Shown: piece after piece, positions 2,618 to 10,398 of the stretch
Position numbering within the stretch: position 1 is the stretch's first letter
How the letters are laid out: the number at the start of each line of letters is the position of its first letter
Assembly: GCA_946405115.1 (NCBI GenBank)
Contig: CAMJGB010000055.1
Location: 1 to 10,398, forward strand
From: an uncultured Clostridia bacterium
GTDB taxonomy: Bacteria; Bacillota; Clostridia; Saccharofermentanales; Saccharofermentanaceae
Direction of reading: 5' to 3'
DNA: 10,398 nt
The notes under the pieces: model-generated
What the model saw: the letters and a program-made list of their open reading frames with translations, nothing else
The model's database searches: none
Told to the model about the DNA's origin: nothing
Translations under genes and position numbers: made by a program

Positions 2618-4135
2618 TTACAGTAAAGGCGCGATGATGCGCAGGATGTTGTCGAGGAACTTACTGAAAATATTCTTCTTCTCGATCCCGATTGTTCTGC
2701 ATTCCTTAAGCGAGTTTAAGTAGTCCTGCTTAAGGTCCGCGATGATGTCTGACTTGTAGAAAACGGAGTTGCACTCGAAGTGCAGGAACAGACTTCTGTA
2801 GTCGAGGTTTACCGTGCCGATGCCGGCCACTTTATCGTCGCAGATAAACGCCTTCGCATGCACGAATCCGGGCGTGTACTCGTATACTTTTACTCCCGCC
2901 TCAAGAAGGTCCTTGTAGTAGCTTCGTGAGAGCCTGAAGACCATCTTCTTGTCGGGGATGCCCGGCATTATTATCCTTACGTCAACGCCTCTTCTTGCAG
3001 CTCTTATGAACGCATCGAAAAGCGCGTCTCCCAACATAAGGTACGGCGTGTAGAACCACACGTAATCGGTAGCAAGGGAAAGCATCTCGGTAAAGAGAGT
3101 GTTGCTCGTGTGCTCGCTTCGCATCGGTGAATCATAGTAAGGAAGGATGTAACCGTTATCGGCTTCCTTCTTCTCCGGAAGCGGAACAAGATTAACGTCG
3201 ATCTTATCCTTCGAATAAGCGTTCCAGAACTCGGCGAACATGTAGATGTAGCTGATAACACCCTCGCCCGTGATCCTGAAACCGATGTCCTTCCAACGGC
3301 CGAATACTTCCTTCGCATTGATGTACTCGTCAGCGATGTTAACGCCGCCGCTGTAAGCGACCTCGCCGTCGATGACCATTATCTTTCGATGGTCTCTGTT
3401 ATTAAGCTGAGTCTTGATGAAGATGAACGGGTTGAACGGGATTACCTTAATGCCCTTCTTCGCAAGGCCGACCACGTCCTTCATGGAGTAAGTGCCGATG
3501 CTTCCGAGGTCGTCGTACATGACGCGGACTTCGACGCCCTTAGCAGCCTTCTCCGCAAGGATTGCCGTGATGGTATCCCAGAACAAACCGTTCTCGATGA
3601 TGAAGTACTCGATGTAGATATACTTCTCGGCTTTCTTAAGATCCTCCACCATGTCGTGGAACATATTCTCGCCGAAAGGATAGTACCTTGTAGTATCCGC
3701 CTTAAGTATGGGAAAACCTGTAGACTCGGTGATGCGGTGCAGGCTCTGGCCGATACGCATGTCGTCGGCCTTTACTGCATCCGCGTTATCACCTGCAATC
3801 TTAATTATTGAAGCGGGATCCACATGTGTGTTCGCGAAGTTCTTCTTGAGCTTGGTTCCGGTTCTCTTGTTGCCGAGGAACAGGTACAGTATCGCACCTA
3901 AGATCGGCATCGCGACGATTACGATCGCCCACAAGATCTTGTAAGCGCTCTCATCTCTTTTGGATACAAGATTAGTTACAAAGATTATCGCAAGTATCGC
4001 GAAGACAACGGCTATGATATTCGCAAGATAACCGTTAAGAACCTTATTAAGTCCTATTATCGCGAAGTAATACCATGTGAACTGAAGAATAACCGCAGGT
4101 ACCACTGCGATTACTCTGGCTATGACCTTCTTCAT
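2618..4135 (-). CDS. cls: Cardiolipin synthase, phospholipase D superfamily
   Basis: This 505-residue membrane protein should join two phosphatidylglycerols to form cardiolipin and glycerol. Three hydrophobic segments are visible at about 4-28, 36-56 and 67-88; the last carries the typical N-terminal phospholipase D-nuclease motif (P..GA.LY...G). Two catalytic HxKxxxxD motifs follow: His249/Lys251/Asp256 and His426/Lys428/Asp433, each followed by the expected G-x-x-N segment (GGVNIADEY and GTVNLDYRS). Length and order match bacterial ClsA-type enzymes (about 480-510 residues), so it looks intact. The RBS GGGGAGG ends 5 nt before the ATG, but it lies in the loop of an inverted repeat (see 4135-4187). 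The small lipoprotein gene is 34 bp upstream on the same strand, so the two are probably co-transcribed from the promoter at 4579-4587. Confidence 0.95.
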   Translation of the reverse strand: MKKVIARVIAVVPAVILQFTWYYFAIIGLNKVLNGYLANIIAVVFAILAIIFVTNLVSKRDESAYKILWAIVIVAMPILGAILYLFLGNKRTGTKLKKNFANTHVDPASIIKIAGDNADAVKADDMRIGQSLHRITESTGFPILKADTTRYYPFGENMFHDMVEDLKKAEKYIYIEYFIIENGLFWDTITAILAEKAAKGVEVRVMYDDLGSIGTYSMKDVVGLAKKGIKVIPFNPFIFIKTQLNNRDHRKIMVIDGEVAYSGGVNIADEYINAKEVFGRWKDIGFRITGEGVISYIYMFAEFWNAYSKDKIDVNLVPLPEKKEADNGYILPYYDSPMRSEHTSNTLFTEMLSLATDYVWFYTPYLMLGDALFDAFIRAARRGVDVRIIMPGIPDKKMVFRLSRSYYKDLLEAGVKVYEYTPGFVHAKAFICDDKVAGIGTVNLDYRSLFLHFECNSVFYKSDIIADLKQDYLNSLKECRTIGIEKKNIFSKFLDNILRIIAPLL

Positions 4136-4609: not shown

Positions 4610-5779
4610 TTATTTAACGCTTCCGAGCCTGTGCTTAAAATCATCGTATCCGAAGTTAGTAATCTTATCTATAGAGCCGTCTTCCTTAAGCCTATAGATA
4701 TCGGGAAGGGGCATGCCGTTAAACGTGTTGTTCTTGCACGTGGTGTAGATCGCCATGTCCTCGAACACCAGAAGGTCGCCTTCCTTAAGTTTGTTATCAA
4801 AACTATAGTCACCTACAACGTCACCTGAGAGGCATGTAGGGCCTCCGAGCCTGTAACGGTATGGTTTTGTATCTTCGCTGTCCGCGCCCCTGAGAGGCGG
4901 TGTGTACGGCATCTCGATGACATCCGGCATGTGGCACGCTGCACTTGCATCAAGGATCGCGATGTTAACATCCTGATTCTCCACTACATCGAGCACATGC
5001 GTAAGAAGATATCCTGCATTAAGCGCCACCGCTTCGCCGGGCTCAAGGTAAACCTGCACGCCCCACTTCGCCTTCGCATCAATAAGGATCTTCTCAAGCT
5101 TAGCCACGTCATAATCAGGCTTCGTGATGTGATGACCGCCGCCCATGTTAAGCCACTTCATCTTGGGGAGCACGTCGCCGAACTTCTCCTCGACTGCCTT
5201 TATCGTCACTTCAAGCGCATCCGAATTCTGCTCACAAAGCGTATGGAAGTGAAGACCGTCCAGCACCTCGAAAAGCTCCGGCGTCATCTCCTTATCCCAC
5301 ACGCTTCTCGTTACGCCCAAGCGGCTTCCTCTTGCACACGGATCGTAGATCTCGTGACCTTCCTGAGTGGAGCACTCGGGGTTGATCCTAAGGCCCACGC
5401 TCTTGCCTTCTTTCTTTGCCTTGGCACCGAACTTGGCAAGCTGATGGATCGAGTTAAATACGATGTGATCTGCGTAGTTAAGAAGCTCATCGAATTCATC
5501 GTCGCGGTACGCTCCGCAGAAGACGTGCACCTCACCTTCGGGCATCTCTTCCTTGCCAAGTCTCGCTTCGTAAAGCCCGCTTGCTTCAGTACCTGCAAGG
5601 TAGCCTGAAAGAAGCGGATAGAAGTCGTAATTAGAGAAAGCTTTCTGCGCGAGCAGAATCTTGCAGCCCGTGCGGGACATAACTGAAGTTAAGGCTTCAG
5701 AGTTCTTACGAAGCTGCTTTTCGTCTATGACGTAACAAGGTGTTTTTAAACCGTCGAAGATGCCGTCCATGTTCATCAT
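4610..5779 (-). CDS. nspC: Carboxynorspermidine/carboxyspermidine decarboxylase
   Basis: This PLP enzyme of the alanine racemase-fold decarboxylases removes CO2 from carboxyspermidine (or carboxynorspermidine) to give spermidine, the last step of the pathway encoded here. The 389-residue sequence has the family landmarks in order: LAQKAFS with PLP lysine Lys46, RINPECS (131-137), HFHTLCE (177-183), the phosphate-binding GGGHH (213-217), EPGEA (246-250), DASAACHMPD (277-286) and the catalytic-cysteine motif GGPTCLSGD with Cys316. Length matches the family (about 375-400). It is the last gene of the operon; its first ATG overlaps the preceding stop codon as ATGA. Start choice is uncertain: the only RBS-like sequence, GGTGG, is 1 nt from ATG1 and 4 nt from ATG2 (5776) but 10 nt from ATG4 (5770), which begins MDGIFDGL. 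Carboxyspermidine is the more likely substrate, because putrescine is made by the same operon. Confidence 0.95.
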   Translation of the reverse strand: MMNMDGIFDGLKTPCYVIDEKQLRKNSEALTSVMSRTGCKILLAQKAFSNYDFYPLLSGYLAGTEASGLYEARLGKEEMPEGEVHVFCGAYRDDEFDELLNYADHIVFNSIHQLAKFGAKAKKEGKSVGLRINPECSTQEGHEIYDPCARGSRLGVTRSVWDKEMTPELFEVLDGLHFHTLCEQNSDALEVTIKAVEEKFGDVLPKMKWLNMGGGHHITKPDYDVAKLEKILIDAKAKWGVQVYLEPGEAVALNAGYLLTHVLDVVENQDVNIAILDASAACHMPDVIEMPYTPPLRGADSEDTKPYRYRLGGPTCLSGDVVGDYSFDNKLKEGDLLVFEDMAIYTTCKNNTFNGMPLPDIYRLKEDGSIDKITNFGYDDFKHRLGSVK

Positions 5780-7035
5780 TCCACCAATGTAGGATTGAAG
5801 TTCTCTCTTCTCGGGAGACCGTGCTTGTCGAGTGCGTCGAGGAACGGATCCGGATCGAATTCTTCAACCGTGTGAACGCCCTTATCTGTCCACTTGCCTG
5901 TAAGAAGCATGAGTGCGCCGCACATTGCAGGTACGCCTGTTGTGTAGCTTATAGCCTGGCTCTCAACTTCCTTGTAGCACTCCTGGTGATCGCATACGTT
6001 GTAGATGTAGTATGTCTTGTCCTTGCCGTCCTTCTTACCCGTGAAGATGCAGCCGATGTTTGTCTTGCCGTGTGTGCGGGGACCGAGGCTTGCAGGGTCA
6101 GGAAGAAGCTCCTTTAAGAACTTGATGGGAACGATCTCGTGTCCTTCGAAGTTAACTGGAACCGTGGAAAGCATGCCGACATTCTCGAGACACTTCATGT
6201 GAGTAAGATAACTCTGTCCGAATGTCATGAAGAAACGGATCCTCTTAACCTCAGGGATGTTTACTGCGAGGGACTCAAGCTCCTCGTGGTGAAGAAGGTA
6301 CATGTCCTTCTGTCCTACGGAGTCGAAGTCGTACTCTCTCTTGATGCTCATGGCGGGGATCTCTACCCACTTGCCGTTCTCGATGTAGCTTCCGGGAGCG
6401 GAAACCTCACGAAGGTTTACCTCAGGGTTGAAGTTAGTAGCAAAAGCATAGCCGTGGTCGCCGCCGTTGCAGTCGAGGATGTCGATCGTATCGATCTCAT
6501 CGAACTCGTGCTTCTTCGCATAAGCGCAGTATGCCTGAGTTACTCCGGGGTCGAAGCCGCAGCCGAGAAGTGCCGTAAGTCCTGCCTTCTCGAACTTCTC
6601 CTTGTAAGCCCACTGCCAGCTGTAATCGAAGTATGCAGAGAAGCCCTGCTCCTTGCATCTTTTCTCATAGATTGCTCTCCACTCGGGATCGTCTGTATCC
6701 TCGGGCTCGTAGTTAGCTGTATCCATGTAGTTAACGCCGCAGATGAGGCATGCATCCATGATCGTAAGATCCTGATAAGGAAGCGCGATATTCATGACAA
6801 GATCAGGCTTGTATGAATTGATGAGTGCAACCAGTTCATCAACATTATCGGCATCAACCTGTGCCGTTGTGATTACAGTCTTTGTCTTGCCCTTAAGCGC
6901 TTCTGCGAGCGCATCACACTTGGACTTTGTTCTGCTTGCGATGCAAAGCTCAGTGAACACGTCGTCCACCTGACAGCACTTTCTGATAGCTACATTCGCT
7001 ACACCGCCGCATCCGATTACTAATACTCTGCTCAT
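5776..7035 (-). CDS. Carboxynorspermidine/carboxyspermidine dehydrogenase (saccharopine dehydrogenase family)
   Basis: This enzyme should reductively condense putrescine with L-aspartate 4-semialdehyde, using NADPH, to give carboxyspermidine. The N-terminus is a Rossmann fold (VLVIGCGGVANVAIRKC), followed by the family segments DLVMNIALPYQDL, GVNYMDTANYE and LLGCGFDPGVTQAYCAYA. The product is 419 residues, the usual size for this enzyme and close to other short saccharopine-dehydrogenase-like proteins. Lysine-pathway saccharopine dehydrogenase is an alternative by homology, but the speB and nspC neighbours make the polyamine role much more likely. A start at 7041 (two residues longer, MNMSRV) is possible, but the RBS AAGGGGG is only 2 nt from that ATG and 8 nt from the ATG at 7035, which I therefore prefer. 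The stop codon overlaps the next start in an ATGA junction, suggesting translational coupling to nspC. Confidence 0.93.
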   Translation of the reverse strand: MSRVLVIGCGGVANVAIRKCCQVDDVFTELCIASRTKSKCDALAEALKGKTKTVITTAQVDADNVDELVALINSYKPDLVMNIALPYQDLTIMDACLICGVNYMDTANYEPEDTDDPEWRAIYEKRCKEQGFSAYFDYSWQWAYKEKFEKAGLTALLGCGFDPGVTQAYCAYAKKHEFDEIDTIDILDCNGGDHGYAFATNFNPEVNLREVSAPGSYIENGKWVEIPAMSIKREYDFDSVGQKDMYLLHHEELESLAVNIPEVKRIRFFMTFGQSYLTHMKCLENVGMLSTVPVNFEGHEIVPIKFLKELLPDPASLGPRTHGKTNIGCIFTGKKDGKDKTYYIYNVCDHQECYKEVESQAISYTTGVPAMCGALMLLTGKWTDKGVHTVEEFDPDPFLDALDKHGLPRRENFNPTLVE

Positions 7036-7051
7036 GTTCATATCCCCCTTA

Positions 7052-7906
7052 TTATGTGTTGATTGAAAGGATCAATTCTCTTAATACCTTGCATGCTACC
7101 GCTGTTGAAGCGCCGCTTGCATCAAGCATGGGTGCAAGTTCGTTCACGTCTGCTCCCACGATGTTCGTCTTGCTTACCGTAAGAATAGCATCGAGAAGCT
7201 CCGGGAAGTTTACGCCGCCTGCCTCGGGTGTACCCGTTCCGCAGAATACGGAAGGATCAAGACAGTCGAGGTCGATCGTGAAGTACACGGGTGTGTTGTT
7301 CTTGGAAAGCTCCTCGCACACTTCCTTAAGCCCGTCGAAATTAAACTTGTGCATGTCAGTGTGGGAGGCCGCGAACTTGAACTCGTCGCGCTCGCCGCTT
7401 CTTATGCAGAACTGATGGATCTTGCCGTCGCCCACAAGACCGTGGCATCTTCTTAAGACACATGCGTGGCTAAGCTTTACTCCGAGATAATCGTCTCTTA
7501 AGTCAGCGTGTGCATCGAAGTGAATGATCTGAAGATCAGGGTACTTCTTAAACACTGCCTTCACAGCACCGTAAGTTACGAGGTGCTCGCCTCCGATCAT
7601 GATGGGAAGCTTGCCGTCATTTAAGATCTTCTCTGTCTGTTCTTCGATGTCGTTAAGTGCCGATTCCGATGAGCCGAAGCAAAGCTCCAAGTCACCGCAG
7701 TCGAACACTTTATAGTCTGTAAGATCCTTGTCCTGATAGGGACTGTAGGTCTCTATTCCGAAGCTTTCGTGGCGGATGGCTGCGCTTCCGAATCTTGCTC
7801 CCGGACGGAAGCTCGTAGTGGAATCAAAAGGCGCACCCCAGAGTACGATCTTAGATTCATCGTACTCGCTGTCGCAGCCGATAAACGTCTCTACATTCTT
7901 GTTCAC
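7052..7906 (-). CDS. speB: Agmatinase (ureohydrolase family)
   Basis: The enzyme should hydrolyse agmatine to putrescine and urea with a two-manganese centre. The 284-residue sequence shows all expected metal ligands: His108 in GGEHLVTYG, Asp131/His133/Asp135 in HFDAHADLR, and Asp212/Asp214 in TIDLDCLDPS. Length is normal for agmatinases (about 290-310) and no signal peptide is seen. The start is a GTG at 7906 that overlaps the speE stop as GTGA; the RBS GGAGG is 7 nt upstream, which confirms it. The position between speE and the dehydrogenase gene supports putrescine formation. Because it follows speA and speE directly, it could also act on N1-aminopropylagmatine, as in the Thermus thermophilus route. 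Guanidinobutyrase and related ureohydrolases cannot be excluded by motifs alone. Confidence 0.93.
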   Translation of the reverse strand: MNKNVETFIGCDSEYDESKIVLWGAPFDSTTSFRPGARFGSAAIRHESFGIETYSPYQDKDLTDYKVFDCGDLELCFGSSESALNDIEEQTEKILNDGKLPIMIGGEHLVTYGAVKAVFKKYPDLQIIHFDAHADLRDDYLGVKLSHACVLRRCHGLVGDGKIHQFCIRSGERDEFKFAASHTDMHKFNFDGLKEVCEELSKNNTPVYFTIDLDCLDPSVFCGTGTPEAGGVNFPELLDAILTVSKTNIVGADVNELAPMLDASGASTAVACKVLRELILSINT

Positions 7907-8757
7907 GATTCAACCTCCATAAGCATCTTTTCGAGGTATGCGGGAAGATAGAAAGAACCCACATGAAGTTTTGTTGTGTAGTACTTGGTGCTTAAGTGAA
8001 GCTTCTTCCACCTCTCCTCGTCGAAGTCCTCGATGGGGTGGTACTTCTTGCTCGCGAAACCGAAAAGCCAGTAACCCGCGGCGTAGGTCGGAATGTGTGC
8101 CTGATATACGCGGCTTATGGGGAACGTGTTTACAATTCTCTTATGGCTTCTCTGCATTGCTTCTGCGTCGTGCTTGTAGAAGGGGCTTCCCTGCTGGTTT
8201 ACCATGATGCCGTCGCTTCTTAAAGCGTTGTAGCAGATGCCGTAGAACTCTCTTGTGAAGTAACCCTCGGAAGGGCCGAACGGATCGTTGGAATCGACGA
8301 TGATGAGGTCGTATTCGTCTGTGCTTCTTCTTATGAAACGAAGTGCATTATCGTAGTAGATATGCACTCTTGAGTCATCGAGCTTGCAGGCATTCTCGGG
8401 AAGATATGTGCGGCATGCTTCGATAACCTTGTCGTCCATCTCAACGAGATCGATTCTCTTAACGCTCTCATATCTTGTGAGCTCCTTAACGACACCTCCG
8501 TCTCCCGCGCCGATAACGAGAACATCCTGCACGTTCGGATGAACGGACATCGGGATGTGCGTGATCATCTCGTCGTAGATAAACTCGTCGCGCTCCGTGA
8601 GCATTACGTTGCCGTCAAGCGCCAGCACCTTACCGAACTCGGGTGTGTCGAAGATGTCGATCTGCTGATAATCGCTCTTGCCCGAATAAAGGTGTCTCGT
8701 AACACGAATGCTGTGTCTTACGTCAGGTGCGTGGTATTCGCTGAACCAAAGATTCAT
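7903..8757 (-). CDS. speE: Polyamine aminopropyltransferase (spermidine synthase)
   Basis: The protein should transfer the aminopropyl group of decarboxylated S-adenosylmethionine to an amine such as putrescine. The 284-residue sequence has the family motifs: LTERDEFIYDEMITHIP (53-69), the nucleotide-binding GAGDGG (83-88), the ribose-binding acid in VEMDD (Glu106), the gatekeeper loop DSNDPFGPSEGYF (155-167) with Asp155 and Asp158, and HIPTYAAGYWLFGFASK (221-237). Two positions differ from the common pattern: Asp62 where His or Gln is usual after the tyrosine, and Asn157 where Ser or Thr is usual in DSTDP. The RBS AAGGAGG, 6 nt before the ATG, supports the start. It is 11 bp downstream of the speA-type gene and overlaps speB by 4 bp. 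No speD (the source of the aminopropyl donor) is in the window, although the operon already encodes the SAM-independent route to spermidine. Confidence 0.94.
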   Translation of the reverse strand: MNLWFSEYHAPDVRHSIRVTRHLYSGKSDYQQIDIFDTPEFGKVLALDGNVMLTERDEFIYDEMITHIPMSVHPNVQDVLVIGAGDGGVVKELTRYESVKRIDLVEMDDKVIEACRTYLPENACKLDDSRVHIYYDNALRFIRRSTDEYDLIIVDSNDPFGPSEGYFTREFYGICYNALRSDGIMVNQQGSPFYKHDAEAMQRSHKRIVNTFPISRVYQAHIPTYAAGYWLFGFASKKYHPIEDFDEERWKKLHLSTKYYTTKLHVGSFYLPAYLEKMLMEVES

Positions 8758-8768
8758 CCGTCTCCTCC

Positions 8769-10223
8769 TTATACCAGAATGTTGATGTTGTTGATGTCCG
8801 GATCCTCGGGACCTGTCATGGAACAGCCCTTGGCCTTCGCATAGCTTATGTAATCGAGGATGTCTGCCGTGATCCTCTCACCCGGAGCAAGGATCGGGAT
8901 TCCCGGCGGGTAGCACATAACGAACTCGCTGCAGACCTCTCCCGCGCTGTCCTTAAGAGGAACGCTCTTTTTCTTGGAATAGAAAGCCTTCTGGGGACTG
9001 CATACGACCTCGGGGTCGATGTACTCCTGGCTCATGAGACCGTCGGGATCTTTCTTGTATCTTCTGCGGATCTCGGCGAGCGCACTTACGAGTCGCTCGA
9101 GCTCCTGCATTCTGTCGCCGATGGAAAGATATGCGAGGATGTTTCCGATGTCACCGAACTCGATCTGGATGTCGTACTCATCTCTTAAGATGTCGTAAAC
9201 CTCGATTCCCGCGAGACCAATGTCTCTTGTGTGGACACTGAGCTTCGTGGGGTCAAAATCGAAGATGGAATCGCCGTTGATCATCTCGCGTCCGTAAGCA
9301 TAGTAGCCTCCGATCGCGTTGACCTCTTCCCTTGCATACTCCGCCATCTCGATTACCTTGCGGAATACTTCCTTGCCTCTTAAAGCGAGGTTTCTTCTGC
9401 TTATGTCGAGGCTCGACATGAGAAGATAGCTTCCCGATGTCGTCTGAGTAAGATTGATGATCTGTCTTACGTGTCCTTCGCTTACATTCTCACCGATGAG
9501 AAGAAGGCTCGACTGTGTTAAACTTCCGCCGCTCTTGTGCATCGATACTGCAGCCATGTCGGCACCTGCACGCATTGCAGAAACAGGCATGTTCTCGCCG
9601 AAGTAGAAGTGTGTTCCGTGAGCCTCATCTGCAAGGCACAGCATGCCCGCATCGTGCGCCATCTTTACGATAGCTTTGATGTCGCTGCAGATACCGTAGT
9701 AAGTCGGGTTATTAACGAGAACTGCAACTGCATCAGGATTCTCCTCGATCGCCTTCTTAACCTGGTCGCGGTTCATGCCGAGTGAGATTCCGAGTCTTCG
9801 GTCAACATCAGGATTAACGTAAACCGGGATCGCACCGCACAGTACCAGGGAGTTGATTACGCTTCTATGCACGTTACGAGGGAGGATGATCTTATCGCCC
9901 TGTTTGCAGCAGGAAAGAACCATGCTCTGAACCGAGCTTGTCGTGCCGCCTACCATGAGGAACGCGTGCTTTGCGCCGAATGCATCTGCAGCAAGAAGCT
10001 CCGCCTCGTGTATTACCGACACGGGATGGCAGAGGTTATCGAGAGGCTTCATGCTGTTTACGTCAACGCCTACGCACTTCTCGCCGAGAAAAGCAGTAAG
10101 CTCGGGGTTGCCCTTGCCGTGCTTATGTCCCGGCACGTCGAAAGGCACGACTCGCATCTCTCGGAACTTCTCGAGTGCCTCGTAGATCGGAGCTCTTGTC
10201 TGATCCAAATCTGTTCTTTCCAT
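8769..10223 (-). CDS. speA: Orn/Lys/Arg decarboxylase, aspartate aminotransferase fold (probable arginine decarboxylase)
   Basis: This PLP enzyme should decarboxylate arginine to agmatine, opening the pathway. The 484-residue protein is the short form without the N-terminal wing domain, like Bacillus SpeA. Visible motifs are PGHKHGKG (31-38), GGTTSSVQS (92-100), PRNVHRSV (115-122), LADEAHGTHFYF with PLP-contacting Asp199 and His202, SMHKSGGSLTQSS with Schiff-base Lys230, and the C-terminal MCYPPGIPILAPGE (436-449). Arginine rather than ornithine or lysine is inferred from the agmatinase gene two places downstream; the motifs alone do not decide. The start at 10223 is supported by the RBS GAGG 6 nt upstream and by family-like sequence beginning near residue 11 (APIYEALEKF). 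It is the first gene of the operon; the leader upstream contains an apparent terminator (10234-10272). Confidence 0.93.
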   Translation of the reverse strand: MERTDLDQTRAPIYEALEKFREMRVVPFDVPGHKHGKGNPELTAFLGEKCVGVDVNSMKPLDNLCHPVSVIHEAELLAADAFGAKHAFLMVGGTTSSVQSMVLSCCKQGDKIILPRNVHRSVINSLVLCGAIPVYVNPDVDRRLGISLGMNRDQVKKAIEENPDAVAVLVNNPTYYGICSDIKAIVKMAHDAGMLCLADEAHGTHFYFGENMPVSAMRAGADMAAVSMHKSGGSLTQSSLLLIGENVSEGHVRQIINLTQTTSGSYLLMSSLDISRRNLALRGKEVFRKVIEMAEYAREEVNAIGGYYAYGREMINGDSIFDFDPTKLSVHTRDIGLAGIEVYDILRDEYDIQIEFGDIGNILAYLSIGDRMQELERLVSALAEIRRRYKKDPDGLMSQEYIDPEVVCSPQKAFYSKKKSVPLKDSAGEVCSEFVMCYPPGIPILAPGERITADILDYISYAKAKGCSMTGPEDPDINNINILV

Positions 10224-10233
10224 AGTTCACCTC

Positions 10234-10272
10234 AAAACAAAAACGCAAGCTGTGTAATCTCACAACTTGCGT
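10234..10272 (-). terminator. Intrinsic terminator/attenuator in the leader of the polyamine operon
   Basis: On the minus strand the arms ACGCAAGTTGTG (10272-10261) and CACAGCTTGCGT (10254-10243) form a 12-bp stem with one G-U pair and a 6-nt loop (AGATTA). TTTTGTTTT follows at once, making a T-tract interrupted by one G. The tract runs into the speA RBS GAGGTG (10228-10233), and the start codon is only 19 nt from the stem. The plus strand shows no T-run after the stem, so the structure acts on minus-strand transcripts. There is no room for a promoter between it and speA, so the hairpin must be inside the operon's own transcript. Confidence 0.75.
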
Positions 10273-10398
10273 ATGGTTCATGAATATTCTGTCGGCCATC
10301 ATACAGGAATCAATGCCCCCGTACGATGAATAATCCGGTATCCAGAGTCTATATAGCAATACTACTTTTACTACTCTTATTGACCATTTCACAAGTCT
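10273..10398 (-). other. Upstream leader of the polyamine operon (no clear promoter)
   Basis: This 126-bp stretch upstream of the attenuator-like stem carries no convincing gene. Weak -10-like hexamers are TATATA (preceded by TGC, near 10350-10355) and TATGAT (near 10295), neither with a matching -35, so the promoter may lie beyond the window. Two copies of AGTAGTA lie in tandem near 10359-10376. I did not recognise a known riboswitch class. Part of the stretch could form the antiterminator that competes with the stem. Confidence 0.35.

What the first reader, a model, noticed from the sequence alone, without database searches (positions are those of the whole stretch)
10224..10398. Polyamine operon appears to be controlled by premature termination just before the first start codon
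A 12-bp stem-loop with a T-rich tail lies 19 nt upstream of the speA start, and its tail touches the RBS. The start is well supported, so a promoter cannot fit between the hairpin and the gene. All operon transcripts must therefore pass through it. This points to attenuation, by a polyamine- or arginine-responsive RNA, a leader peptide or an antiterminator protein. I did not recognise a known riboswitch in the 126 bp upstream, so this may be an undescribed leader element.
Basis: partly seen in the sequence, partly recalled or inferred. Interest (0 to 1): 0.72.

Follow-up and report, generated by a model that had tools for sequence, protein, structure and literature searches.

The report
Candidate polyamine-sensing leader RNA switch
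The hairpin in front of this bacterial polyamine operon is the stop signal at the end of a large, highly conserved RNA that sits before polyamine-making or polyamine-importing genes in many related bacteria and looks like an unstudied on/off switch for them.

Summary
A 12-bp terminator hairpin (10272-10243, minus strand) with a U-rich tail ends 19 nt before speA. It ends a ~220-nt structured leader RNA that the contig end cuts: the window keeps model positions 163-218 (10398-10343; E 3.4e-15). In relatives the RNA has covarying helices (36 of 51 pairs changed on both sides; 327 such cells against 81 in shuffles). In 68 of 69 loci the first recognised downstream gene, same strand, is speA, speD, carboxynorspermidine dehydrogenase or potA. 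Of 210 aptamer positions, the one that best pairs with the terminator's 5' arm is helix P6's 3' strand, GACUUGUG: a competing antiterminator, 10397-10390 with 10271-10264. Best reading: a transcription-terminating riboswitch that lowers polyamine synthesis and import when a polyamine, most likely spermidine, is plentiful. Ligand, direction and switching are inferred, not measured. Only the first quarter is catalogued (Rfam RF02440, a 54-nt 'sRNA'). It is not the known spermidine riboswitch, a SAM-I variant: no SAM match appeared. My ten paper searches found no description of the full RNA.

The parts
10343..10398 (-). 3' quarter of the conserved leader RNA (model R1 positions 163-218); the 5' three quarters lie beyond the contig end
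   Evidence: cmsearch 58.3 bits, E 3.4e-15, flagged as cut at its 5' end; contig ends at 10398
10390..10397 (-). GACUUGUG: 3' strand of helix P6 (partner UAUAAGUU lies off the contig) and proposed antiterminator strand
   Evidence: P6 97.7% of cells paired in 100 sequences; best of 210 positions at pairing with terminator 5' arms
10377..10383 (-). UCAAUAA: 3' strand of long-range helix P4 (partner UUAUUGA off the contig)
   Evidence: helices 6 and 7, 94.4 and 99.0% paired, nearly invariant so little covariation
10373..10376 (-). GAGU: pairs with ACUC 10348-10345, as a pseudoknot in the aptamer fold or a local hairpin in the read-through fold
   Evidence: 98.0% paired; U-A becomes C-G in 4 of 100 sequences
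10355..10360 (-). AUUGCU: 3' strand of closing helix P1 (partner AGCAAU-like, off the contig)
   Evidence: all 6 pairs have two-sided changes, 89.5% paired
10345..10348 (-). ACUC: partner of GAGU 10376-10373, or of the 5'-terminal AGAGUC in relatives
10297..10328 (-). local hairpin in the linker, lineage-specific
   Evidence: predicted; absent from the closest relative L003, so not essential
10264..10271 (-). CGCAAGUU in the terminator 5' arm: 8-bp complement of 10397-10390 (antiterminator)
   Evidence: duplex -8.9 kcal/mol for the window; 0.8% of 243 control terminators pair as well
10243..10272 (-). intrinsic terminator hairpin, 12 bp, 6-nt loop
10234..10242 (-). U-rich tail of the terminator
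   Evidence: sequence
10228..10233 (-). GAGGUG ribosome-binding site of speA
   Evidence: sequence
8769..10223 (-). speA: Orn/Lys/Arg decarboxylase family (PF01276), first gene of the operon
   Evidence: Pfam 239.8 bits against cut-off 27; no NCBIfam model reached its cut-off
7903..8757 (-). speE, polyamine aminopropyltransferase
   Evidence: NCBIfam PRK00811 364 bits, over cut-off
7052..7906 (-). speB, agmatinase
   Evidence: TIGR01230 269 bits, over cut-off
5776..7041 (-). carboxynorspermidine dehydrogenase/synthase (CANSDH)
   Evidence: best match NF043000, 408 bits, below its cut-off of 800
4610..5779 (-). carboxynorspermidine decarboxylase (nspC, CANSDC)
   Evidence: TIGR01047 445 bits, over cut-off

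Best explanation
The hairpin is the terminator half of a cis-acting, riboswitch-like transcription attenuator. A ~220-nt RNA folds into a multi-helix aptamer (P1 closing helix, P2, P3, P4, P5, P6, P7, P8) in which UAUAAGUU pairs with GACUUGUG (P6). While P6 holds that strand, the downstream terminator forms and the operon stays off. If the aptamer does not hold, GACUUGUG pairs with CGCAAGUU in the terminator's 5' arm and polymerase reads into speA. The genes shared across relatives (spermidine synthesis by two routes, and spermidine/putrescine import) make spermidine, or a close polyamine, the most likely ligand, acting as an OFF signal. Shown by comparison: the RNA, its helices, its genes, the terminator, the complementarity. 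Inferred: mutual exclusion in the cell, ligand identity, sign, and independence from proteins. Rough split: attenuator with a competing fold 0.9; direct polyamine sensing given that 0.75-0.8.
For: RNA and helices: A1 (41 leaders) 96.7% of cells paired, 17 of 55 pairs with two-sided change against 6.4 in shuffles, 0/500; A2 (100 leaders) 36 of 51 pairs, 327 cells against 81.1, 0/500. Genes: the 69 loci covering all 70 distinct model matches of the phylum and class searches have as first recognised same-strand gene, starting within 345 nt, speA 20, speD 25, CANSDH 9, potA 14, none 1; some operons are CANSDH-CANSDC and others potABCD. Family: all 59 genomes with the RNA (of 113 searched) are among the 72 of 115 with the speA orthologue (E below 1e-80), RNA upstream on the same contig and strand. 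Antiterminator: P6 3' strand is the top of 210 positions (mean -6.7 against -3.1 kcal/mol for control terminators); 69 of 95 leaders beat 95% of 243 controls; difference still -2.6 kcal/mol, p 0.0009, among 14 leaders under 60% identical.
Against: No binding, termination or expression data. In ViennaRNA the aptamer-plus-terminator fold is the more stable in all 7 leaders computed, by 0.2-12.6 kcal/mol, and the unconstrained fold is lower than both, so read-through would have to rely on co-transcriptional kinetics; thermodynamics does not give the sign. 26 of 95 leaders do not beat 95% of controls; of the 14 most diverse only 6 do, and of 6 potA leaders 3. Pairing is not strict at one position: 34 leaders have an A facing a C there. 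Besides the truncated window, 12 of the 72 family genomes with the speA orthologue gave no RNA match (up to two of them may not have been among the 113 searched). One genome (L006, identical to L032 around the leader) lacks the 3' third, antiterminator strand included, but keeps the terminator.
Confidence: 0.72

Rival explanations
1. Same RNA, different ligand: it senses putrescine, agmatine, arginine, S-adenosylmethionine or a SAM derivative rather than spermidine.
For: speA-type enzymes use arginine or lysine, speD uses SAM, and putrescine is a substrate of the import and synthesis steps (gene identities; reactions from pathway knowledge).
Against: CANSDH-CANSDC operons without other recognised polyamine genes in the 7 kb read (L180-L183, L190) and potABCD operons share no arginine- or SAM-using step; spermidine is the compound common to all four gene settings (pathway knowledge).
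Confidence: 0.17
2. A protein (a polyamine-responsive RNA-binding regulator) sets the balance between terminator and antiterminator.
For: Attenuation by proteins is common in Bacillota (established knowledge); nothing here excludes it.
Against: Protein sites are usually short and simple (recalled), whereas this RNA keeps dozens of invariant bases over ~220 nt and many covarying helices.
Confidence: 0.09
3. The RNA is a free trans-acting small RNA gene, as Rfam's type for RF02440 says, and the terminator is simply its 3' end.
For: RF02440 is typed as an sRNA gene; a terminated leader would be seen as an sRNA.
Against: 68 of 69 loci have a polyamine gene as first recognised gene on the same strand, which a trans-acting gene would not need; in the window only 19 nt lie between terminator and start, too short for a promoter.
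Confidence: 0.04
4. Leader-peptide attenuation: ribosomes translating a short frame in the leader decide termination.
For: 75 of 96 leaders have a GTG-started frame of at least 10 codons at alignment column 555.
Against: Only 7 of 96 leaders have any such frame with a Shine-Dalgarno-like site; 1- and 2-nt insertions break the frame in several lineages; the sequence is explained by base pairing.
Confidence: 0.03
5. An ordinary terminator of an upstream gene, unrelated to speA.
For: It has the form of an intrinsic terminator.
Against: A terminator lies between the leader RNA and the gene in nearly all leaders (97 of 101 have one within 330 nt), and its arm keeps complementarity to the RNA; in the window it touches the ribosome-binding site.
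Confidence: 0.02

Closest known systems
Rfam RF02440, SpF59_sRNA ('ldcC RNA'), 54 nt
   Same: It is the first quarter of this RNA: all 17 RF02440 matches in 398 phylum genomes lie inside matches of the full model.
   Different: RF02440 ends shortly after helix P2; it has no P3-P8, no P1 closure, no terminator or antiterminator and is typed as an sRNA gene. The full model finds 24 of 398 genomes against 17. The window itself lacks this part.
Spermidine riboswitch, a SAM-I variant (PMC10853860; start of abstract, find passages, sections 11 and 13 read)
   Same: Controls polyamine genes (ldcC, speE, speB) by a terminator/antiterminator choice; ligand binding favours the terminator.
   Different: It keeps the four-stem SAM-I architecture and is described there as narrowly distributed; no SAM family match here in 12 loci at gathering score or in the L085 leader at E up to 5.
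Attenuator reported in the potABCD leader of Haemophilus somnus and Pasteurella multocida (known to me only from a sentence in PMC8744998, passages read; the original paper not seen)
   Same: Attenuation before a polyamine importer operon.
   Different: Gammaproteobacteria; I did not compare sequences or structures, so relation is untested.
E. coli mdtU / speFL type leader-peptide control (PMC7815308; passages read)
   Same: Polyamine-linked premature termination in a 5' UTR.
   Different: mdtU control there depends on a translated upstream frame and Rho; here no supported frame and an intrinsic terminator.
odc1 and potE motifs (PMC8632094; passages read)
   Same: Candidate RNA elements upstream of polyamine genes.
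   Different: In the passages seen, odc1 is an element incorporating an upstream frame and potE a motif with weak covariation support; I did not compare sequences.

Membership tests
RF02440 SpF59_sRNA | covariance model match above its gathering score | tested here: met
   met in 9 of 12 relatives' loci; not met in the window itself, where that part is cut off
Spermidine riboswitch (SAM-I variant) | SAM-I aptamer architecture | tested here: not met
   no SAM riboswitch match at gathering score in 12 loci nor at E up to 5 in the L085 leader
Spermidine riboswitch (SAM-I variant) | selective spermidine binding | not testable with these tools
   needs in-line probing or transcription assays
Riboswitch (general kind) | conserved structured aptamer in cis, upstream of functionally related genes | tested here: met
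Riboswitch (general kind) | expression platform with mutually exclusive helices | tested here: met
   terminator in 97 of 101 leaders; conserved complement of its 5' arm inside the aptamer; by sequence only, and 26 of 95 leaders do not pass the 95% mark
Riboswitch (general kind) | direct binding of a ligand that changes expression without a protein | not testable with these tools
T-box | match to the T-box family model | tested here: not met
   no T-box match in 12 loci at gathering score or in L085 at E up to 5
Leader-peptide attenuator | conserved, translatable short frame in the leader | tested here: not met
   frame at column 555 in 75 of 96 leaders, but any frame with an SD-like site in only 7 of 96; frame-breaking insertions

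The most novel reading that the evidence does not exclude
A second, structurally unrelated class of polyamine (spermidine) riboswitch: a large, widely distributed Bacillota RNA that senses spermidine directly and shuts off both spermidine pathways (speD/speA/speE and CANSDH/CANSDC) and the potABCD importer by transcription termination, with the antiterminator strand taken from a helix deep inside the aptamer rather than from its closing helix. The 'SpF59 sRNA' would be its terminated leader product.
Probability: 0.62. Interest if true: 0.86.

Novelty: new variant of a known kind. Interest (0 to 1): 0.76.

Why it matters
The spermidine riboswitch paper (PMC10853860, section 13) calls earlier proof of polyamine riboswitches unsatisfying, describes its own class as narrowly distributed, and says it seems certain that further classes remain to be found. 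This RNA is a strong candidate: it sits before four kinds of polyamine gene that have spermidine in common, has clear covariation, and offers a ready-made expression platform to test. Carriers include gut bacteria such as Faecalibacterium, Gemmiger and Blautia (L074, L076, L087), so it could help explain how gut microbes set polyamine output. It also recasts a catalogued 54-nt 'sRNA' as a piece of a much larger regulatory RNA.

Tried and rejected
Considered and rejected: plain terminator of an upstream gene, trans-acting sRNA, leader peptide, T-box, SAM-I-type spermidine riboswitch (see rivals and membership rows). The strong local hairpin at 10328-10297, seen in the window's fold, was dropped because the closest relative lacks it.

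Led nowhere: Rfam on the whole window at gathering scores gave nothing, and on 10100-10398 at E up to 10 only two eukaryotic families far below their cut-offs. The missing 5' part of the leader was not found in the window's own assembly. A further helix ACUGC/GUAGU (91.7% paired, weak covariation) competes with GAGU/ACUC and is left open. Two-state energies do not decide the sign. Ten paper searches and term look-ups in eleven papers (some of these had no passage at all) found no description of the full RNA; the library lacks most subscription journals, and one relevant paper was not held.

Rows dropped: 19 of 109 relatives' leaders lacked one of my anchor motifs; four of these that I later gave to the model (L069, L071, L104, L109) all matched it, so the anchor count is a lower bound. 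A1 holds 41 leaders picked by hand from the other 90. A2 holds 100 of the 162 loci then held, also picked by hand; all 100 matched. In the antiterminator test 4 of 101 leaders had no terminator by my finder and 2 had too short a P6 strand, leaving 95. The finder took the lowest-energy hairpin within 330 nt, and in two leaders (L058, L100) that lies more than 180 nt downstream, in L058 inside the gene; both were kept in the counts.

Full report
What is in the window. The minus strand holds a polyamine operon: speA (Orn/Lys/Arg decarboxylase, PF01276), speE, speB, CANSDH and CANSDC (the CANSDH match is below NCBIfam's cut-off). A 12-bp hairpin at 10272-10243 with a U-rich tail ends 19 nt before the speA ATG. 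The contig ends at 10398, so only 175 nt of leader are visible. That leader folds better than all 200 of its shuffles (z -3.93). Rfam finds nothing in the window at gathering scores, and in 10100-10398 at E up to 10 only two chance-like eukaryotic matches.

What lies beyond the contig end. I searched speA relatives in the window's GTDB family and in named genomes (MAGs named Ruminococcaceae, Saccharofermentans, Lachnospiraceae and others, and cultured Faecalibacterium, Gemmiger, Blautia, Neglectibacter and Acidaminococcus). Upstream of speA, 90 of the 109 relatives' leaders (L003-L111) show all anchor motifs of one ~220-nt sequence (sequences), and four of the other 19 that I tested match its model too. 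Its first 54 nt are Rfam RF02440, SpF59_sRNA or 'ldcC RNA', in 9 of 12 loci tested. For one full leader (L085) at E up to 5, the next Rfam match after RF02440 is a minus-strand one at E 0.019 with 19.8 bits against a gathering score of 97. The rest of the RNA is outside the Rfam model.

Structure. On a MAFFT alignment of 41 hand-picked leaders (A1), a structure that I read from the sequences has 96.7% of cells paired and 17 of 55 pairs with changes on both sides, against 6.4 in shuffles (0 of 500 reach it; slid versions pair 33-45%). A covariance model, R1 (218 positions, 51 pairs), recognises the window's remnant as positions 163-218 with E 3.4e-15, cut at its 5' end. On 100 leaders aligned to R1 (A2), 36 of 51 pairs have two-sided changes, with 327 such cells against 81.1 in shuffles (0 of 500). 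A2 is fitted to the model and so leans towards it; A1 is not, though the structure was read from its sequences. RNAalifold on A2, predicting on its own, gives 27 pairs, 25 of them with two-sided changes, covering P1, P2, P3, P7 and P8 but not P4-P6. Helices: P1 AGCAAU/AUUGCU; P2 GGACC/GGUCC with a hairpin ACUCC/GGAGU; P3 variable; P4 UUAUUGA/UCAAUAA; P5 UUGAG/CUCAA; P6 UAUAAGUU/GACUUGUG; P7 GGUU/AACC; P8 UGCG/CGCA. P4 and P6 are almost invariant, so their support is mainly consistent pairing rather than covariation. GAGU/ACUC is paired in 98.0% of cells with U-A to C-G in 4 of 100 sequences. The far 5' end (AGAGUC-like) also complements GACUCU (mean -7.4 against -3.7 kcal/mol for shuffled flanks, 99 leaders).

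Genes. R1 finds 24 of 398 phylum genomes and 48 of 391 class genomes at E up to 0.001: 70 distinct places in 69 loci, all inspected. The first recognised same-strand gene, starting within 345 nt of the match, is speA in 20, speD in 25, CANSDH in 9, potA in 14 and none in 1, the weakest match of the class search (L209, E 6.4e-4) (frames under 70 codons were ignored). speD was named through one representative (TIGR03331) and the others by similarity to it; CANSDH by similarity to the window's protein; potA by NCBIfam in six loci and by similarity in eight. Some operons read over 7 kb have only CANSDH and CANSDC as recognised polyamine genes (L180-L183, L190), one adds speA and speE (L191), others are speD-speA-speE-speB-CANSDH-CANSDC (L188, L189). 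L184 and L186 read potA-potB-potC-potD, and L185 and L187 are consistent with it (potB, potC and potD by best match, below NCBIfam's cut-offs). One genome has two tandem copies before potA (L207). In the window's family all 59 genomes with the RNA (113 searched) are among the 72 with the speA orthologue (115 searched, E below 1e-80), upstream on the same contig and strand (tables compared by eye). All 17 RF02440 matches in 398 phylum genomes lie inside R1 matches, and of 14 named control genomes Lactococcus lactis has RF02440.

Expression platform. 97 of 101 leaders have a terminator hairpin within 330 nt after the RNA. I asked, without choosing a segment beforehand, which 8-nt aptamer segment best pairs with the terminator's 5' arm. 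Of 210 alignment columns with at least 60 leaders, the best is GACUUGUG, the 3' strand of P6: mean -6.7 kcal/mol against -3.1 for control terminators (six drawn at random per leader from 243 found elsewhere in the same loci), about four standard deviations from the mean of all columns. Leader by leader against all 243 controls, 69 of 95 beat 95% of them, 81 of 95 beat 90%, and 4 do worse than half; the window stands at 0.8%. Leaders are related, so I thinned them: among 36, 20 and 14 leaders under 75, 65 and 60% identity the mean difference is -3.1, -3.2 and -2.6 kcal/mol (p 9e-7, 1e-5, 0.0009), with 19, 11 and 6 passing the 95% mark. In three leaders the P6 base changed from A to G faces a C in the arm, keeping the pair, but 34 leaders have an A facing a C at that point, so strict covariation is not shown.

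How it most likely works. With the aptamer folded, GACUUGUG is held in P6 and the terminator forms. Without it, GACUUGUG (10397-10390) pairs with CGCAAGUU (10271-10264) and polymerase reads into speA. Biosynthesis and import genes under one RNA suggest that the end product turns them off, and spermidine is the compound common to the four gene settings. This sign and ligand are inference. ViennaRNA makes the terminated fold the more stable in all 7 leaders computed, by 0.2 to 12.6 kcal/mol, with unconstrained folds lower still, so the model needs co-transcriptional timing.

Results against. 26 of 95 leaders do not pass the 95% mark, and only 3 of 6 potA leaders do. Besides the truncated window, twelve family genomes with the speA orthologue gave no RNA match (one search searched two genomes fewer, so up to two of the twelve may not have been searched, and its stricter filters lose weak matches). 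One genome has lost the 3' third of the RNA but keeps the terminator (L006, identical to L032 around the leader): either a natural mutant stuck off, or an assembly error. RNAalifold alone did not return P4 to P6. No expression or binding data exist here.

Comparison with what is known. The spermidine riboswitch (PMC10853860; passages and sections 11 and 13 read) is a SAM-I variant before ldcC, speE and speB; this RNA works in a similar way by inference but does not meet the SAM-I architecture test. RF02440 is a fragment of it. E. coli mdtU and speFL (PMC7815308, passages) use upstream frames; here the recurrent frame lacks a ribosome-binding site and is broken by insertions. PMC8744998 (passages) mentions an attenuator in the potABCD leader of Haemophilus somnus and Pasteurella multocida; I have not seen that work or compared sequences. 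Term look-ups in PMC11109978, PMC6429828, PMC7266159 and PMC6296669 found none of the polyamine terms asked for; PMC10942264 only a chance match in its references; PMC8632094 the potE and odc1 motifs; PMC2864571 an unrelated aspartate decarboxylase; PMC11477304 a speF-like motif before an unrelated gene. I did not read supplements. So the claim that the full RNA is undescribed holds only for the papers and searches named.

Verdict.

Noticed in passing
L207 (genome G794, contig C99:37495-37954, minus): Two tandem copies of the leader RNA (E 2.1e-9 and 1.1e-7) before one potA gene, an arrangement known from other riboswitches (recalled).
   Followed up: partly
L006 and L032 (identical around the leader; L006 is genome G074): The leader lacks the 3' third of the RNA (P6, P4 and P1 3' strands) but keeps the terminator and speA: a natural deletion or an assembly error.
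   Followed up: partly
window:4610-8757: The operon has both SpeE and CANSDH/CANSDC, two routes to spermidine, but no speD in it, which SpeE would need; related loci L188 and L189 start with speD. I did not look for speD elsewhere in the genome.
   Followed up: no
window:2005-2604 and 2618-4135: An arylformamidase-like gene on the plus strand (below cut-off) and a cardiolipin synthase on the minus strand lie downstream of the operon.
   Followed up: no
window:4170-4538 and 1-1470: Two open frames of 122 and 490 aa (the second cut by the window's end) without any NCBIfam or Pfam match.
   Followed up: no
L104:1283-1449: A Clostridiales-1 RNA (RF01699, 94.4 bits) about 1 kb upstream of the leader RNA.
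   Followed up: no
A2 columns 178-183 with 581-585: ACUGC (after P2) can pair with GUAGU next to GAGU (91.7% of cells, weak covariation) and overlaps the GAGU/ACUC pairing; it may be another switching element.
   Followed up: partly
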